A stretch of 64,000 nt of DNA from Microcoleus sp. AS-A8 (GCA_039962225.1 JAMPKV010000012.1:62001-126000); one strand, 5' to 3'; shown: positions 52,876-60,009, counted from the first letter of the stretch. Program-made: numbers and translations. Notes: generated from the sequence alone by a model not told the origin.

Positions 52876-53970
52876 ATGAATATGGGAAAAGGTAACAGCA
52901 CTGACTGGACGTATGTGAGTTATGAAAAAATATCAGAAAATTTGAATAAATGGCATCTTACAGAATCCGATTATCGAGTCTTCAAAAAAAACAATTGGGT
53001 CGTAACCGAAAAAATCCATGGCGCTAATTTTGGCATAGTCACCGATGGCTCAGAGGTTCGTTTTGCCAAACGAAAAGAATTTTTACAGCCAGAAGAAGAT
53101 TTCTTTGATTATAAATCTTTGAAAGCTCAATTAGTTGAGCAAGCCAAGAAAATATTCAATATTTTGCAAGCAGAACGAAATGACTTACTAAAACTGTTTA
53201 TATACGGTGAATTATTTGGGGGAGAATATCCTCATCCAGAGGTTCCTTCTATTCCTCATATCCAGGCCGTTCAAACAGGTATTTTTTACTGTCCGACAAT
53301 CGAATACTGTGCCTTTGATATGGCGGTTGAAAGGATCGGTAATGGGTTAACACGAGATTACCTAAATTATGACAAAGCGCTAAGCCTATTTCAGCAAGTC
53401 GGCATGATCGGCGCTGAACCATTATTCATCGGTAAATATGAGGACGCCTTGGCATATAGTCCAGAATTTGATTCTACTATCCCGGCTTTATTAAATTTAC
53501 CGAAGTTGTCGTTCAGAAATCCGGCAGAAGGGATTGTGATTAAACCCGTTAAGTTAATTCATGTAGAAACTCCTAAGGGGAAAGTTAGACCGATTTTGAA
53601 GATAAAGATTCCAGAATTTGCTGAAGATAGGCGATTTCATCAGGCAACAAAATGGAATTCTCAAAAATTTAGTCCTCTTCCAACTCCAACTCAAGGATTG
53701 AGTATTGAAGAGGAGTTGAGTCAGGAAATGCTAGCGCTAGTTACAAAAAAACGATTAAGTAATGTTATCTCGAAAATTGGGAGAGTATCAGGAAGCGATG
53801 AAGGAAGAAAGCCGCAAATTGTTCAATTATTGATGCAGGATATTTTAGAACTATTTAATGAAGAGTGGGAAAGCATTTTCAGTGCTTTATCGGGTGAGAG
53901 TCAGCAAATTCTGATGGAACAGTTGCATCAGGAATCTCAGAAGTTGGTTGAGGTTTACTTGAGTCAGTAG
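52876..53970 (+). CDS. RNA ligase, Rnl2-like family
   Basis: A 364-residue nucleotidyltransferase-type ligase that would seal nicks in RNA with ATP. Motif I is VVTEKIHGANFG with the AMP-accepting Lys46 (KxHG form), motif III IYGELFGG (109-116), motif IV EGIVIKP (219-225) and motif V LKIKIPEF with Lys242 and Lys244. This set, with the KIHG and GELFGG forms, is that of T4 Rnl2 and the RNA-editing ligases (RNA_ligase family), not DNA ligase. The C-terminal 110 residues are helical. No polynucleotide kinase or methyltransferase partner is next to it. Composition is AT-rich compared with neighbours. The ATG at 52876 is followed by a second at the third codon. Confidence 0.9.
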   Translation: MNMGKGNSTDWTYVSYEKISENLNKWHLTESDYRVFKKNNWVVTEKIHGANFGIVTDGSEVRFAKRKEFLQPEEDFFDYKSLKAQLVEQAKKIFNILQAERNDLLKLFIYGELFGGEYPHPEVPSIPHIQAVQTGIFYCPTIEYCAFDMAVERIGNGLTRDYLNYDKALSLFQQVGMIGAEPLFIGKYEDALAYSPEFDSTIPALLNLPKLSFRNPAEGIVIKPVKLIHVETPKGKVRPILKIKIPEFAEDRRFHQATKWNSQKFSPLPTPTQGLSIEEELSQEMLALVTKKRLSNVISKIGRVSGSDEGRKPQIVQLLMQDILELFNEEWESIFSALSGESQQILMEQLHQESQKLVEVYLSQ

Positions 53971-54347
53971 ATGCGATCGCGCTGCCACTCCTCTTGAAGA
54001 ATCACGCTTTGGCTTTGTGATGTTGGGATGCGATCGCCACCAGCGCTACTTTGTCAACAAAACTTGACTGACATCTTGCACTATTCTCAACAAGACCTGA
54101 AAAATCGGGTTTCTCAACGAATAATCAAGGTTTGCAGGTTGCAACAATCGCAATAAACCCAGTTTTTAGCGCTAGTGCAAGATATGAGTTGACATACCTA
54201 GATGGAGAGTCCATTATTCCCTGCCAGGGGGTTATTACTGAACTCTCCAGTGAGCTCATGCCGACAATTTGAGTAATTTTATAGAGGAAATAGCCAGCTA
54301 TATAGAGAAGAATTTGGACAACACCTGAAAAAAATAGACGAAACAAG
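53971..54347. other. intergenic region before the paralogue-TPR cluster
   Basis: About 375 bases. It has two HIP1-like octamers near 53973 and 54030 and the remains of small repeats (cgggtttct near 54107). A reverse-strand frame across 54125-54346 begins with TTG, has no ribosome site and is not supported. The promoter of the downstream operon should lie in its last 150 bases; I could not define it. Confidence 0.4.
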
Positions 54348-55616
54348 ATGAAGGTTAGTACTGACGATCAGAATCAGGAAGGTATACCCACCGACTCGAT
54401 AGGGAAGGATGAACAGGATAGTATAGGCGGAATCACGGTATCGTCTCAGCTACCTGAGAACACTAACCAGCAGCAATCTGCTGACAAACAAAGCACTGAT
54501 GTTGAGCAAATATCTCGGCCACAGGAAACTAACGCCAAAGCTACCTATGGCGAGAAAACAGATAGAATCCAAGCCTGGGTTCAATTTATCAGAACACTAG
54601 CCCCTTTTATCTGGGCGAGCGTGATTCTGGTTGTGATTATTCCCCTTGTCGGTCAACTATTTATAGCCAAAGCCTTTTCAACTAAAAGTATTACTACAGA
54701 GACTAAGCACCCGGTAGAAGTCGTTGAACAGCGTCAAGTTGACTGGAGCAAAGTTAATGAAGCCATGAAACTGTCGCTTGATAATGCCTATAACAGTGCC
54801 GAGGATTATGCCTCTAAAGAACTCGATCTCTGGGTTGATGAATTAATGGGTAGAGTTGATAGTAGCTTTTTAGATTGGTATTTCGGCTACTTCAATCAGA
54901 AGCAGATCGAGTACAAGAGTCTTTTTGTTCAACTCACATCAGGTGCGAGTCGTTTATTAAATCCCAATAATCCAACCCCAGCCGAAAAAGTTGCTGAAGT
55001 CATTACTGAAGATTTTCAGAAAGAATTTGCTAAACGGGTACTCCTACCACAAACGTCCCAACTCAGACTAGAACGCATAACCCAACAAGCTGTTAAGCAC
55101 TACCTCGATGAGTTAAAGGAGAACATCAACAGTATTCCAGTACGTTACAACCTACCCCAGGCAGATTGGGAGCGCTATCTCAATGAGATTGCCATCACCA
55201 TTAATGATACTGAAGGTAAAATCTCGAATCTTTCTTTGAAGGTGTTGGCTGGTGGTGGTAGCTATTTAGCTCTAAAACCTTTAGTTGCTCCGCTTGTCTT
55301 AAAAGTTGGTAGTAAGGTTGTTACTAAACTGGCTAGTAAGGCTGGCGCAAAAGTTGCTACAAAGACGGGTGCAGTTCTGGCTGGTAAGTTAGGGGCAGCG
55401 ATTTTAGATTCTACGGTTGGTGTGGGCATCATTCTTTGGGATGTCTGGGACACTAACCACACAGCTCATGTGGAAAAGCCAATTTTGCATGACAATCTTG
55501 CCGCTTACTTGCAAGAAGTAAAATTTTCCCTTCTCAACAACCGTGAGAACGGAATTATGACCGTAATTGACCAAATACAAAATAAGATTGTGCCAAATCT
55601 CAATAAGTTCATGTAA
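54348..55616 (+). CDS. unrecognised membrane protein, paralogue A of a tandem pair
   Basis: A 422-residue protein. Residues 1-80 are polar and probably disordered (Gln/Asn/Asp-rich); 84-106 form one transmembrane helix (IWASVILVVIIPLVGQLFIA). The large C-terminal domain contains ELDLWVDELMGRVDSSFLDW, YFGYFNQKQIEY, the segment LPQADWERYLNEI, then an Ala/Gly/Lys-rich amphipathic stretch (VVTKLASKAGAKVATKTGAV) and VGVGIILWDVWDT. The Ala/Gly part has the pattern of glycine-zipper or membrane-inserting helices. Paralogue B (55699) aligns along this whole C-terminal domain. I recall similar unnamed proteins in other bacteria but no function. It is probably the first gene of a three-gene operon. Confidence 0.75.
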   Translation: MKVSTDDQNQEGIPTDSIGKDEQDSIGGITVSSQLPENTNQQQSADKQSTDVEQISRPQETNAKATYGEKTDRIQAWVQFIRTLAPFIWASVILVVIIPLVGQLFIAKAFSTKSITTETKHPVEVVEQRQVDWSKVNEAMKLSLDNAYNSAEDYASKELDLWVDELMGRVDSSFLDWYFGYFNQKQIEYKSLFVQLTSGASRLLNPNNPTPAEKVAEVITEDFQKEFAKRVLLPQTSQLRLERITQQAVKHYLDELKENINSIPVRYNLPQADWERYLNEIAITINDTEGKISNLSLKVLAGGGSYLALKPLVAPLVLKVGSKVVTKLASKAGAKVATKTGAVLAGKLGAAILDSTVGVGIILWDVWDTNHTAHVEKPILHDNLAAYLQEVKFSLLNNRENGIMTVIDQIQNKIVPNLNKFM

Positions 55617-55698
55617 TTAAGAGATTGATGGGGAGATACCCGATTAACACTCTCCCCATTCCCTTATCGATCATCAAATTAGTGACAAGGAAAATAAC

Positions 55699-56754
55699 AT
55701 GTTTCACCGTCGATTATTTAAGCTGCTTGTCTGTCTAACTCTTAGCCTTCTCTTAACTTTAACTGGACTGGTTCCAGCTCTTGGAAAAATTTATCCAGCT
55801 TATGCCGTTGATGTACTAAAAACACCTAGAGGGAATGTAACTGCTTTCGCGAGTACTAATGAATCAACCGACTGGTATCAAATTGACAAAGAGCTGATAG
55901 ATGCAGTCAGAAGATCACATGATAGTACGGAAGAGTTTGCGGCTTATGAATTAGATGATTGGCTCAATAAATTAATGGTTAAGGTAGATCATAAATTTCT
56001 AAATTGGTACTTTAGCTATTTTAATCAGAAAGCGATGGAATTTGGCATTCCTTTCGCTTGGTTAGCATTTAAAGCAGACTTCCTGAACTTATTAAAGAAA
56101 GAAGATGAAACACATATAAATGCAAATCAAATTTTACAAAGAAGAATGATTAATGATTTGCAAAATAAATTTAGTGAACTCGTATTAAGCCCAGAAGAAG
56201 CCCAAACATCTTTATCAAGATTAACAGAAAGGGTTGCCCGTAATTATGCTTCAGGGCTAGGTATGCAGTTAGCTACAATCAAAAACTCCTACAAAATTCC
56301 AGATAGAGAGTGGGAAAGATATTTAAATACTCTTGCCAGCCTAGTCTATGACACTGGGGCTAGTAACTATAGTTTGTCACCAGAAAGTATAACAAGTAAT
56401 CTAGCAACTAAATCAATAATTGTTGGTACAGCAGGCATAGGTGGTAAATTAGCTCTAAATTTTGCTGCTAAAGCGGCTGCCAAGATAGCGGCGAAAGCTG
56501 GAGGTGCAATAGCGACTAAGGTGGCTGCTCAACTTATAGATCCCGTTTTGGCAGTAGGAATTTTGATTTGGGATACATGGGATTACAACAACATGGTTAA
56601 TGCATCTCGACCCGTACTCCGTCAAAATATTCTGGAACACTTAAATGAAGTAAAGCTATCAATTCTTGATTCACCTGAGAACAGTATCATGGCATCCATT
56701 GAAGATGTGGAACGCAAAATAATCACTGCATTGGAATCTAGCCCAACTTCTTAA
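55699..56754 (+). CDS. unrecognised exported protein, paralogue B of a tandem pair
   Basis: A 351-residue protein. The N-terminus is a signal peptide (MFHRRLFKLLVCLTLSLLLT, ending near AYAVD) rather than the cytoplasmic arm and anchor of paralogue A. The mature part follows A block by block: ELDDWLNKLMVKVDHKFLNW with YFSYFNQKAMEF, IPDREWERYLNTL, the Ala/Lys-rich AAKAAAKIAAKAGGAIATKV, LAVGILIWDTWDYN, and the closing LNEVKLSILDSPENSIM. The shared domain therefore lies outside the cytoplasmic membrane in both, if A has its N-terminus inside. The gene is more AT-rich than A. It starts 82 bases after A and is probably co-transcribed. Confidence 0.75.
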   Translation: MFHRRLFKLLVCLTLSLLLTLTGLVPALGKIYPAYAVDVLKTPRGNVTAFASTNESTDWYQIDKELIDAVRRSHDSTEEFAAYELDDWLNKLMVKVDHKFLNWYFSYFNQKAMEFGIPFAWLAFKADFLNLLKKEDETHINANQILQRRMINDLQNKFSELVLSPEEAQTSLSRLTERVARNYASGLGMQLATIKNSYKIPDREWERYLNTLASLVYDTGASNYSLSPESITSNLATKSIIVGTAGIGGKLALNFAAKAAAKIAAKAGGAIATKVAAQLIDPVLAVGILIWDTWDYNNMVNASRPVLRQNILEHLNEVKLSILDSPENSIMASIEDVERKIITALESSPTS

Positions 56755-56819
56755 ATAAAATGTGTAAGTTTTAAGAATAGGAATAACGGCACTATTGGTC
56801 GAAGAAAGAATCCTCAAAA

Positions 56820-57542
56820 ATGTCTAAAGTTAACCAAGTAATTGAATCGCTTATGTCTAAAATTAAGCAGGTAATTCAAGGGATTGAGCGCTGGGCTAAT
56901 CTGATTGGACTTATCATCGCTGTGATTGCGCTGATTTATACTATCCTTCCCTATTACAATGGCTCAGTCAATGTTACGAATTTTGATGGCTCAGTCAAAG
57001 TTACAAATTTTCAAGAGGCTAACCTCTGTAACGGATACCTGGTTAACGATCCCTTATCTGACGTGCTGACGAACACTAGTCTCAGCGACAAGGAAAAAGA
57101 CTATCTGGAAAGCAAAATCAACTGCTATCGCGATCAAATACAGAAGAACCGCAACGATGCAGGATTATACACGAATATAGGCGAAGCTGAGCGACGATTA
57201 GGCAATTTGGAAGCTGCTCGTAAAGCTCATCAAAAAGCCTTGGAGTTAAAACCAGACTTGCCAGAAGCAAGAATAGGGTTGGCACTGGTAGAGCAAGACA
57301 TGGAAAATACGGTAGCTGCTAACCAAGCGATTCAAGGAGTGTTAGCTGTACATCCTAGGAATGCAATCGCTCATTTCTACCAAGGTACGATTCTTTATGC
57401 TCAAAACCAGTTGAAGGATGCAACAGTAGCGTGGCAAAAGGCGAAAGAATTAGATCCAAAGCTGCCTAAGCTCGTCAGCAGTTGGAAATTGCCTAATATG
57501 AAACATGTACTAGGCTGGCAAAAGAACGAGCCAAGTGTTTAG
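56820..57542 (+). CDS. membrane-anchored TPR protein
   Basis: A 240-residue protein with an amphipathic start, one transmembrane helix (about 27-46; LIGLIIAVIALIYTILPYY), a duplicated motif (SVNVTNFDG / SVKVTNFQE) and three or so tetratricopeptide repeats (about 118-225: AGLYTNIGEAERRLGNLEAA, RKAHQKALELKPDLPEARIG, NAIAHFYQGTILYAQNQLKD). TPRs bind partner proteins. It follows paralogue B by 65 bases on the same strand. With A and B it may form one envelope complex in which the TPR domain, probably on the outer side of the membrane, docks the shared domain; this is inference from the arrangement. Confidence 0.78.
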   Translation: MSKVNQVIESLMSKIKQVIQGIERWANLIGLIIAVIALIYTILPYYNGSVNVTNFDGSVKVTNFQEANLCNGYLVNDPLSDVLTNTSLSDKEKDYLESKINCYRDQIQKNRNDAGLYTNIGEAERRLGNLEAARKAHQKALELKPDLPEARIGLALVEQDMENTVAANQAIQGVLAVHPRNAIAHFYQGTILYAQNQLKDATVAWQKAKELDPKLPKLVSSWKLPNMKHVLGWQKNEPSV

Positions 57543-57735: not shown

Positions 57736-59022
57736 ATGAATCGACAAAAACTCAATCGAGTGGGTGCTATTGTGGCAGCAGGGATTGTTCTCTCAGGACT
57801 AGTGGGAGGGTTGATGGCGCAGAAAATCGACGCTCTTGACTCCCACCCTAACTCCCAAAAACCTGAGAATTCACGTTTAATGGCACAATCGCCCAATCGA
57901 CCCGTGGATTCAAAGCTTGTTGATGCGAATACAAAATTTGGTTTCAAGCTGTTCCAAGAGGTTCTTAAAGAGGACAGCAACAAGAATGTTTTTGTCTCGC
58001 CTACCAGTATAGCGATCGCACTTTCCATGACTTACAACGGGGCGAGTGGCGAAACGCAACAAGGAATGGCAAAAGCGCTGGAACTCCAAGGCATAAGCTT
58101 ACAAGACATCAACCAGGCGAATGAAACTTTAAAATCCTCCTTAGAAAAAGCTGATCCTGATGTTCAGCTATCCATTGCCAACTCCCTCTGGGCTAAGCAA
58201 GGCACCCCATTCAAGCCGGAATTTATACAAAGAAATCAACAATTTTATAAGGCCAAAGTAACTGAACTAAACTTTGCGAGTCCTGACGCCGCTAAAACTA
58301 TAAACGGTTGGGTTCAAGAAAATACTCGTGGAAAAATAGATCAAATTGTTAATCAAATTCAACCCGAAGATGTTCTCTTTTTAATTAACGCTGTTTATTT
58401 CAAAGGGAACTGGACAAAGCAGTTCGATAAAAGTCAAACCGCTGAACGCCCATTCTATCTGTCGAATGGTAGCCAGAAGCAACATCCCATGATGTCTCAG
58501 TCCGGTAAGTATCGATATTATGAAAATGACTCTTTCCAGGCGGTGAGTCTACCTTACGGGAAAGGGCGTCTGAGTTTGTATGTTTTCCTGCCCAAAAAAG
58601 ATACCAATTTAGTCGCTTTTCAACAGCAACTCTCTCTCGAAAACTGGCAACTATGGATGAACCAATTCCAAATGCGGTCTGGTTCACTTCAGTTGCCTCG
58701 CTTCAAATTTGACTACAATATTCAACTCAACAGCGCCCTAAAAGCCCTGGGGATGGAGTCGGCTTTCAATACTGGAGCCAATTTTTCAAATATGACTTCA
58801 GCTTCAGTTGCCATTGATCAAGTCAGGCACAAAACCTTCGTAGAAGTGAATGAAGAAGGCACAGAAGCCGCTGCGGCAACCTCTGTGGGTGTAATGCTAA
58901 CCTCAGCCCAAATGCCAACAGAACCCTTCCAAATGGTGGTTGACCGCCCCTTCTTCTGTGCGATTCGGGATAATCAAACAGGAACGCTTCTATTCATGGG
59001 TTCCATCAAAGAACCGAAGTAA
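57736..59022 (+). CDS. exported serpin (serine/cysteine protease inhibitor)
   Basis: A 428-residue serpin. Residues 11-28 are a signal peptide or anchor without a lipobox cysteine, then a linker and the serpin fold from about 60 (NVFVSPTSIAIALSMTYNGA, SIANSLWAKQG, VNQIQPEDVLFLINAVYFKG). The reactive loop is intact: hinge EEGTEAAAATS (373-383) with small residues, as in inhibitory serpins. Counting from P17 (Glu373), P1-P1' would be Thr389-Ser390 (VMLTSAQM), which suggests an elastase- or papain-like target. The end FFCAIRDNQTGTLLFMGSI matches the shutter region. A GAGG site precedes the ATG. An extracellular or periplasmic role is likely. Confidence 0.95.
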   Translation: MNRQKLNRVGAIVAAGIVLSGLVGGLMAQKIDALDSHPNSQKPENSRLMAQSPNRPVDSKLVDANTKFGFKLFQEVLKEDSNKNVFVSPTSIAIALSMTYNGASGETQQGMAKALELQGISLQDINQANETLKSSLEKADPDVQLSIANSLWAKQGTPFKPEFIQRNQQFYKAKVTELNFASPDAAKTINGWVQENTRGKIDQIVNQIQPEDVLFLINAVYFKGNWTKQFDKSQTAERPFYLSNGSQKQHPMMSQSGKYRYYENDSFQAVSLPYGKGRLSLYVFLPKKDTNLVAFQQQLSLENWQLWMNQFQMRSGSLQLPRFKFDYNIQLNSALKALGMESAFNTGANFSNMTSASVAIDQVRHKTFVEVNEEGTEAAAATSVGVMLTSAQMPTEPFQMVVDRPFFCAIRDNQTGTLLFMGSIKEPK

Positions 59023-59037
59023 AAAGATTATCTAACA

Positions 59038-60009
59038 ATGAAATCCATGAAATTTTGGGTAGGGGGAACTGATAATGATTGGTTTCAATTTTTATCAAAA
59101 AAATTGCCAGATGAAGTAAATTTTTGGCAACCAAGTGGAGAACCACCATTCACAACAGCAGTTGAACCAGGAGCGCCTTTCCTATTTAAATTGAAGCGTC
59201 CCTACCATGACATCGCAGATGGAGGAATCTTTGTTAAGCATACAAATCTTCCCGTTTCACTTGCATGGGAAATTTTTGGAGAGAAAAATGGCACATCTAG
59301 TTATGGAGAGTTATTGGATAAAATTTTAAGCTATACAAAAAATAAAGGTCAAACTCAAATAGATCCCTCCATTACCTGTGTTGTAGTCACCCAGCCATTC
59401 TTTTTTAACCAAAATGATTGGATTCCAGCCCCAGAGAATTTGAGTCGTTCCGTAGTTAGGGGGAAGAAGTATGGTACTGATGAACCAATAGGAGCAAGAT
59501 TGTGGGCAGATGTGCAAGCACAATTAAATGGAGTTTCCCCAGATATAAGCGAGATAGAATCTACTTCAGTCTCTGAAGAGGGTGGACGTTATGGTTCTCC
59601 ATACCTGCGGGCTAATCGTTTAGGTCAAGGTGCTTTTCAAGTTATTGTAAGGGATGCCTACAATAGACAATGTGCAATCACTGGAGAACCTCTACTCCAT
59701 GTATTAGATGCAGCTCATATCAAACCCTATTCTGAATCAGGGCCACATACCGTTAATAATGGTCTTTTACTAAGGGTAGATTGGCATAGGCTATTTGATA
59801 GGTTTTTCATCACAATTAAGGAATCTAAAAATAAAGACTTTCGGATAGAAGTTAGTAAGCGTATTAGAGAAGACTGTGAGAATGGTGGATATTATTATGG
59901 GTTTCATAGAGAACCTTTAAAAGTGTTACCTTCTCAAACTGAAGATTTACCTGCCAAAGAGTACCTTGAATGGCACAATAATAACTTTGATTGTAGAGAG
60001 TACCACTAA
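59038..60009 (+). CDS. HNH endonuclease with N-terminal EVE/PUA-like domain
   Basis: A 323-residue protein starting 15 bases after the serpin stop. Residues 1-140 (FWVGGTDNDWFQFLSKKLPD, VNFWQPSGEPPF, VSLAWEIFGEKNG) match the N-terminal domain of a common group of putative HNH restriction enzymes and have a PUA/EVE-like layout often tied to modified-base recognition. The HNH domain is around 200-265: QCAITGEPLLHVLDAAHIKP (HNH first His), NNGLLLRVDWHRLFD (Asn and final His). No methyltransferase gene is adjacent, which fits a modification-dependent (type IV-like) nuclease; this is inference. The short distance to the serpin gene suggests a shared transcript. Confidence 0.85.
   Translation: MKSMKFWVGGTDNDWFQFLSKKLPDEVNFWQPSGEPPFTTAVEPGAPFLFKLKRPYHDIADGGIFVKHTNLPVSLAWEIFGEKNGTSSYGELLDKILSYTKNKGQTQIDPSITCVVVTQPFFFNQNDWIPAPENLSRSVVRGKKYGTDEPIGARLWADVQAQLNGVSPDISEIESTSVSEEGGRYGSPYLRANRLGQGAFQVIVRDAYNRQCAITGEPLLHVLDAAHIKPYSESGPHTVNNGLLLRVDWHRLFDRFFITIKESKNKDFRIEVSKRIREDCENGGYYYGFHREPLKVLPSQTEDLPAKEYLEWHNNNFDCREYH

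What the first reader, a model, noticed from the sequence alone, without database searches (positions are those of the whole stretch)
54348..57542. Three-gene cluster: two paralogous envelope proteins plus a membrane TPR protein
Paralogues A and B share a 250-residue domain (LD-W---LM--VD--FL-WYF-YFNQK, later WERYLN, then an Ala/Gly/Lys-rich helix stretch and VG(I/V)(G)I(I)(L)WD(V/T)WD). A carries it behind a transmembrane anchor with a long polar arm, B behind a signal peptide. The Ala/Gly/Lys helices look able to insert into membranes. A TPR protein with its own anchor follows. The set suggests a dedicated envelope complex or a membrane-active effector with a docking partner. I know no described system with this layout.
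Basis: partly seen in the sequence, partly recalled or inferred. Interest (0 to 1): 0.66.

Follow-up and report, generated by a model that had tools for sequence, protein, structure and literature searches.

The report
Paired exported dynamin-stalk-like proteins, no GTPase
Two neighbouring cyanobacterial genes make related helical proteins that face the outside of the cell membrane and resemble, weakly, the membrane-bending arm of dynamin proteins without the dynamin motor; if true, bacteria have a motor-less outer-side version of a membrane-shaping machine.

Summary
Genes A (54348-55616), B (55699-56754) and a membrane-anchored TPR gene (56820-57542) are real. A and B are paralogues (34% identity) of a helical family with no convincing Pfam, NCBIfam, PHROG or PDB-sequence match. 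The family occurs in 68 of 291 sampled genomes of the window's order. The A-B pair is conserved: all 8 B-type genes found lie 4-83 bp behind an A gene. The TPR gene accompanies it only in one congeneric genome, so the "trio" is local.
A is membrane-anchored with its N-terminus inside; B has a signal peptide. Both therefore present the helical domain outside the cytoplasm. Predicted models of A and B (moderate confidence) resemble dynamin-superfamily stalks more than other folds. Bacterial-dynamin profiles (LeoA type best) score forward family sequences well above reversed or shuffled ones, in one stalk-paddle-C-terminus register. Profile-profile comparison is not significant. No GTPase domain exists.
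My best reading: an extracytoplasmic, GTPase-less, dynamin-stalk/paddle-like heteromeric pair that binds and shapes or tethers membranes. Kinship is probable rather than proven, and function is inferred. One sub-clade is divergently paired with an HTH-NB-ARC STAND ATPase, suggesting regulated deployment.

The parts
54348..55616 (+). Gene A, 422 aa: membrane-anchored paralogue
   Evidence: dN/dS 0.20; homologues in 68/291 order genomes
54348..54602 (+). A residues 1-85: polar, probably cytoplasmic arm, variable between homologues
   Evidence: positive-inside statistics
54609..54665 (+). A residues 88-106: transmembrane helix (IWASVILVVIIPLVGQLFI)
   Evidence: mean hydropathy 2.53; N-in in 39 of 47 A-type members
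55245..55436 (+). A residues 300-363: Ala/Gly/Lys stretch with lysine every 4th residue, proposed paddle
   Evidence: spacing-4 Lys/Arg pairs 159 seen, 31 expected in shuffles; register with LeoA paddle
55699..56754 (+). Gene B, 351 aa: exported paralogue
   Evidence: B-type genes always directly behind A in 8/8 loci; dN/dS 0.25
55699..55806 (+). B residues 1-36: signal peptide, predicted cleavage after AYA
   Evidence: sequence; AxA-type motif in all 8 B-type members (sequences printed, read by eye)
56380..56568 (+). B residues 228-290: Ala/Gly/Lys stretch, proposed paddle, ends before WDTWD
   Evidence: low-confidence part of the model
56820..57542 (+). TPR protein, 240 aa, TM helix at residues 25-43, TPR repeats about 104-218, two Cys (70, 102)
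   Evidence: orthologue next to A-B only in G202
54189..54217 (+). Candidate sigma-70-like promoter before A (10 of 12); number of such sites in the region is not above chance

Best explanation
A and B are a co-inherited pair of extracytoplasmic, mostly helical proteins related to the stalk and paddle of bacterial dynamin-like proteins (LeoA/BDLP type) but without the GTPase domain. A is held in the inner (or thylakoid) membrane by one TM helix, with its domain on the periplasmic or lumenal side; B is exported through a signal peptide and is soluble or peripheral on the same side. I infer that they assemble with each other through the helical stalk, as proposed for anchored/soluble dynamin pairs (LeoBC/LeoA; Mgm1 long/short). 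I infer that the lysine-ladder Ala/Gly-rich paddle dips into the facing leaflet, so that the assembly bends, tethers or seals membrane without GTP. Shown: paralogy, pairing, selection, absence of a GTPase domain, sequence signals for topology. Supported but not proven: dynamin stalk/paddle kinship. Inferred: assembly, membrane insertion, remodelling. The TPR protein may be a genus-specific partner.
For: Models of B and A (mean pLDDT 65 each, pTM 0.59-0.60) both rank dynamin-superfamily stalks at the top of VIA-align: MxB 4whj Z 11.1 (rmsd 4.1, 199 residues) for B and 10.4 for A, then MxA, dynamin, Drp1, SynDLP, BDLP, C. jejuni DLP and, for A, IniA and LeoA. Foldseek's first hit for B is BDLP 2j68 (prob 0.87). 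HMMs of cyanobacterial LeoA-type DLPs score family members up to 19.0, 13.3 and 11.5 bits, against at most 2.7 for the same sequences reversed and 3.0 shuffled; 46 of 56 score better forward than reversed. Thirteen unrelated profiles plus two helical controls (PspA/IM30, MCP) show no comparable scores. In a database of about 1,300 ORFs and reversed ORFs the LeoA HMM's top hits are family members and two ORFs that also match the BDLP profile, one a Dynamin_N protein. The detailed hits share one register: stalk, then 'vlgpalavv' on 'LIDPxxxVGIxxWDxWD', then C-terminal helix. PADLOC LeoBC hits 3 members, best 5e-5, behind its GTPase part. Topology: K/R excess on the N side of the TM in 39 of 47 A-type members; AxA signal peptides in B. 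A-B pairing in 8/8 B loci, each type in its own clade. Precedent: LeoA was found mainly in the periplasm, and its authors compared LeoBC/LeoA with anchored and soluble Mgm1 (PMC4159319).
Against: hhalign profile-profile comparison with LeoA, LeoBC and BDLP profiles is not significant (P 0.004 to 0.033, probability under 10%); a first deeper LeoA profile reached 24.5% but contained unrelated ORFs, and the cleaned one gave 3.0%, with 1 of 60 shuffles reaching the true score. Z about 11 lies within the range the tool warns may only mean a common helical bundle; the designed bundle 4uos scores Z 10.5. Both models rest on the same six sequences. E. coli LeoA alone scores 1.9 bits, reached by 60 of 2000 shuffles. 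The family's own HMM gives reversed family sequences up to 18.9 bits, so repetitive composition is a hazard. No membrane or assembly data exist, and no A-B complex was predicted.
Confidence: 0.45

Rival explanations
1. A/B are a two-component alpha-pore-forming protein of the ClyA / tripartite (AhlB, SmhB) type: long helices carry a hydrophobic head that inserts and oligomerises into a pore, with A as anchored member and B as diffusible member.
For: Paralogous tandem genes and a signal peptide fit; ClyA is Foldseek's first hit for A (E 0.009, TM-score only 0.13); AhlB, SmhB, MakB and MakE appear at Z 5-6.
Against: Fit is much worse than to dynamin stalks (rmsd mostly 10-11 against mostly 4-6). 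A has a cytoplasmic arm and TM anchor, unusual for a secreted pore former. A-type genes mostly stand alone.
Confidence: 0.15
2. The proteins are regulated effectors of a STAND-type conflict or cell-death system: an NB-ARC ATPase with an HTH-like N-terminus controls the membrane protein, which disrupts the membrane when deployed.
For: In one sub-clade all 7 members lie next to a divergent HTH-NB-ARC gene while outer neighbours mostly vary (NB-ARC), and these neighbours are often the closest mutual relatives among 12-57 copies per genome. Patchy distribution in the order.
Against: The window's pair has no STAND neighbour; the HTH part may mean plain transcriptional control; most members lack the link; no PADLOC defence system is matched beyond the weak LeoBC similarity.
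Confidence: 0.2
3. The proteins are structural envelope scaffolds (helical spacer or adaptor proteins) unrelated to dynamins; the helical-bundle resemblance is convergence and the Ala/Gly/Lys stretch only packs helices.
For: Profile-profile comparison is not significant; a designed bundle scores almost as well as dynamins; Ala/Gly/Lys stretches with a similar AWDTHD end occur in an unrelated protein (L147).
Against: The top forward scores are far above reversed and shuffled ones only for the DLP profiles, LeoA most clearly, and not for helical controls PspA and MCP; the LeoA hits examined keep one register.
Confidence: 0.2

Closest known systems
LeoA / LeoBC bacterial dynamin-like proteins (E. 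coli ETEC; cyanobacterial relatives)
   Same: Helical stalk, Gly-rich hydrophobic paddle, C-terminal helix in the same order; tandem paralogous pair, one member with a membrane anchor; periplasmic location reported for LeoA (PMC4159319)
   Different: A and B have no GTPase domain; B has a clear signal peptide, which Leo proteins lack; sequence similarity is marginal
BDLP1 (Nostoc), SynDLP, C. jejuni DLP pair
   Same: Among the best-ranked structural matches for the predicted models; BDLP1 has a membrane-inserting paddle
   Different: They are GTPases with a G domain; sequence identity in the structural alignments is only 6-12%
Mgm1/OPA1 long and short forms
   Same: Anchored plus soluble form on the side topologically equal to the periplasm (comparison made for LeoBC/LeoA in PMC4159319)
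   Different: GTPases, two forms of one gene product, eukaryotic
ClyA / tripartite alpha-pore-forming proteins
   Same: Long helices with one hydrophobic stretch; tandem paralogues in the tripartite systems
   Different: Poor structural fit (rmsd mostly 10-11); A has a TM anchor with a cytoplasmic arm

Membership tests
Dynamin superfamily / bacterial DLP | N-terminal GTPase (Dynamin_N) domain with P-loop | tested here: not met
   No Dynamin_N match in any of 43 members; A and B lack GxxxxGK[ST]
Dynamin superfamily / bacterial DLP | Helical stalk (neck/trunk) fold | tested here: inconclusive
   Top VIA-align rows are dynamin stalks, Z 8-11, but within helical-bundle background
Dynamin superfamily / bacterial DLP | Hydrophobic Gly-rich paddle between stalk helices | tested here: inconclusive
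   LeoA HMM hits align paddle on the Ala/Gly/Lys stretch in one register; hhalign not significant
Dynamin superfamily / bacterial DLP | Genes in tandem pairs (typical for bacterial DLPs) | tested here: met
   A-B pair in 8/8 B-type loci; most A-type genes are single
Dynamin superfamily / bacterial DLP | Nucleotide-driven oligomerisation and membrane remodelling | not testable with these tools
   needs purified protein
Alpha-pore-forming proteins (ClyA, AhlB type) | ClyA-like fold with hydrophobic head | tested here: inconclusive
   Z 5-6, rmsd mostly 10-11
PspA/IM30 (Vipp1) family | PspA_IM30 profile match | tested here: not met
   No Pfam match; PspA HMM scores forward no better than reversed
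STAND/NB-ARC-linked effector | Adjacent NB-ARC ATPase gene | tested here: not met
   Absent at the window; present in one sub-clade, 7/7
TPR protein (third gene) | TPR repeats over Pfam cut-off | tested here: met
   TPR_11 49.5 bits against cut-off 26.8

The most novel reading that the evidence does not exclude
A widespread bacterial family of exported dynamin-like proteins that lack the GTPase: anchored A plus soluble B form stalk-and-paddle assemblies that reshape membrane from the periplasmic or lumenal side without nucleotide, in some lineages under control of a STAND ATPase.
Probability: 0.35. Interest if true: 0.75.

Novelty: new variant of a known kind. Interest (0 to 1): 0.5.

Why it matters
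Dynamins are recognised by their GTPase, and a survey of cyanobacterial dynamins used that domain as the marker (PMC5827413), so a stalk/paddle family without it would have been invisible. LeoA poses an open puzzle: its authors located a GTPase in the periplasm, where nucleotides are absent, and found no signal sequence (PMC4159319). A family that is plainly exported and has no GTPase would make it directly testable whether dynamin-like stalks and paddles can shape membranes without GTP.

Tried and rejected
Pfam, NCBIfam, PHROGs, PADLOC and PDB-sequence searches with A, B or the 43-member family: no convincing match. Viral contigs and phages: none. A hit outside the class (G446, E 9e-5) proved to be an unrelated Ala/Lys-repeat protein. 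Viral predicted structures: nothing significant. The conserved N-terminal domain of the STAND-linked sub-clade occurs nowhere else in nine genomes searched, so it gave no functional clue. hhalign against LeoA, LeoBC and BDLP profiles: not significant; a first run used global mode by mistake and was discarded. A conserved trio was rejected. A P-loop pattern GxxxxGK[ST] occurs in three other family members; I take it as a chance match in Gly/Lys-rich proteins, not checked further. Literature phrases for GTPase-less dynamins: no papers.

Full report
CHECK OF THE OBSERVATION. The window lies in a 7.75 Mb genome; named homologue records place it among cyanobacteria. The three ORFs are exactly where stated: A 54348-55616 (422 aa), B 55699-56754 (351 aa), TPR 56820-57542 (240 aa), with gaps of 82 and 65 bp. 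B matches A at E 4e-56, 34% identity over residues 21-345. Against the congeneric copy (L053, genome G202), dN/dS is 0.20 for A, 0.25 for B, 0.39 for TPR: real genes under purifying selection.

FAMILY AND NEIGHBOURHOOD. A-like or B-like proteins occur in 68 of 291 genomes of the order and in 8 of 145 sampled across the class. Two alphaproteobacterial plasmids (Microvirga ossetica, Methylobacterium bullatum) also carry relatives. No phage or viral match was found. Of about 50 loci examined, most have one A-type gene; eight carry an A-B pair. In all eight B is directly behind A, 4-83 bp apart. The A genes of these loci and the B genes of these loci form two separate clades, each at 100/100 support, the A clade holding one extra single gene, which fits one ancient duplication followed by co-inheritance. 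Two further loci have other tandem copies that are not of the B type (L058, L064). The TPR gene is beside the pair only in the window and in G202; its N-terminal part has one other moderately similar relative (G199, 48% over 98 residues) and otherwise only weak matches. The unit is therefore A-B, not the trio.

TOPOLOGY. In A-type members the best hydrophobic segment has more K/R on its N side than on its C side in 39 of 47 and fewer in 2, so the N-terminal arm should be cytoplasmic and the helical domain outside. All eight B-type members start with a hydrophobic segment followed by an A-x-A type motif (sequences printed, read by eye). The arm differs between lineages: low-complexity in the window, a folded-looking domain of about 110 residues in one sub-clade. 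The TPR protein has a TM helix with K/R on the N side only (3 against 0), which suggests that its TPR part also faces out.

THE ALA/GLY/LYS STRETCH. In 51 members, the 60 residues before WDxWD hold 19% Ala, 15% Gly, 11% Lys. Lys/Arg pairs four residues apart number 159 against 31 in shuffled segments, and eight apart 170 against 29. Relatedness inflates the z-scores (25 and 28), but the pattern is plain: a lysine ladder on a small-residue helix, an arrangement that suits an interfacial membrane-inserting helix (inference).

WHAT IT RESEMBLES. Curated libraries give no convincing match, except that PADLOC's LeoBC dynamin model hits three members, best 5e-5; for A the match covers LeoBC positions 302-503, behind the GTPase part. 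AlphaFold models of B and A (mean pLDDT 65) are almost all-helical. In VIA-align, dynamin-superfamily stalks fill nearly all top rows for both. The caution is explicit: Z 11 can be background for helical bundles, a designed bundle reaches 10.5, and both models used the same six sequences.

SEQUENCE TEST. I therefore built profiles of cyanobacterial LeoA-type, LeoBC-type and BDLP-type proteins and scored 56 family members forward, reversed and locally shuffled. LeoA: forward top 19.0, 13.3, 11.5, 9.6; reversed at most 2.7; shuffled at most 3.0; forward better than reversed in 46 of 56. BDLP: 14.1 against 8.3. LeoBC: 9.1 against 4.5. Thirteen other protein clusters reach at most 5.4 forward, although one of them also scores forward above reversed in 43 of 56. 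PspA/IM30 and MCP, long-helix controls, reach 4.5 and 0.2 and do not prefer forward sequences. In a mixed set of about 1,300 ORFs and reversed ORFs the LeoA profile retrieves family members and two ORFs that also match the BDLP profile, one of them a Dynamin_N protein. The three LeoA alignments printed share the same register through the paddle. Against this, profile-profile comparison stays non-significant. I rate kinship with the dynamin stalk/paddle at roughly 0.55, and the full mechanistic statement at 0.45.

MECHANISM. No member tested has a Dynamin_N domain, and the compartment would offer no GTP (stated for the periplasm in PMC4159319). The arrangement, one anchored and one soluble paralogue on the outer face, mirrors LeoBC/LeoA and the Mgm1 long/short pair discussed there. 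The most economical mechanism is stalk-mediated co-assembly with paddle insertion, producing curvature, tethering or sealing. Only the gene and sequence facts are shown; assembly and membrane action are inferred.

REGULATION. Seven members form a 100/100 clade, all beside a divergent gene (intact in five, truncated or split in two) encoding an N-terminal HTH-like region and an NB-ARC ATPase. Such genes number 12-57 per genome in these strains, so seven of seven adjacencies are far beyond chance even allowing for common descent, and outer neighbours mostly differ. This suggests regulated expression or deployment in that lineage. The window's pair lacks this neighbour.

NOVELTY. No paper was found for GTPase-less bacterial dynamins with the phrases tried, within an open-access library only. 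If kinship holds, it is a new variant of a known kind; if not, it is an uncharacterised envelope helical family.

Noticed in passing
window 57736-59022: A secreted-looking serpin (Pfam Serpin 8.8e-126) directly downstream of the TPR gene, kept in the same place in the congeneric genome.
   Followed up: no
window 52876-53970: T4 RNA ligase 2-type protein (RNA_ligase 1e-21, T4_Rnl2_C 2.5e-20) upstream of A, also kept in G202.
   Followed up: no
window 59038-60009: HNH endonuclease protein similar to PADLOC HNH and type II restriction models (4e-13), absent from the corresponding position in G202.
   Followed up: partly
L074, L076, L077, L078, L079, L082, L083: HTH-like plus NB-ARC STAND genes divergent from the family gene; truncated or split in L077 and L078; a short remnant of the same protein family also lies upstream of the A-B pair in L002.
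   Followed up: partly
genome G197: 57 matches to the HTH-NB-ARC protein in one genome, a large expansion.
   Followed up: no
L147:568-2310: Unrelated 581-aa Ala/Lys-repeat protein ending in a glycine-rich segment with AWDTHD.
   Followed up: partly
L019:12967-15531: A GTPase-bearing dynamin-like protein (Dynamin_N 7e-15) about 5 kb downstream of a family member; seen once, may be chance.
   Followed up: partly
L141, L146 (genome G152): LeoA-type dynamins in very long open frames (1713 and 1411 aa), possibly fused tandem dynamins.
   Followed up: no
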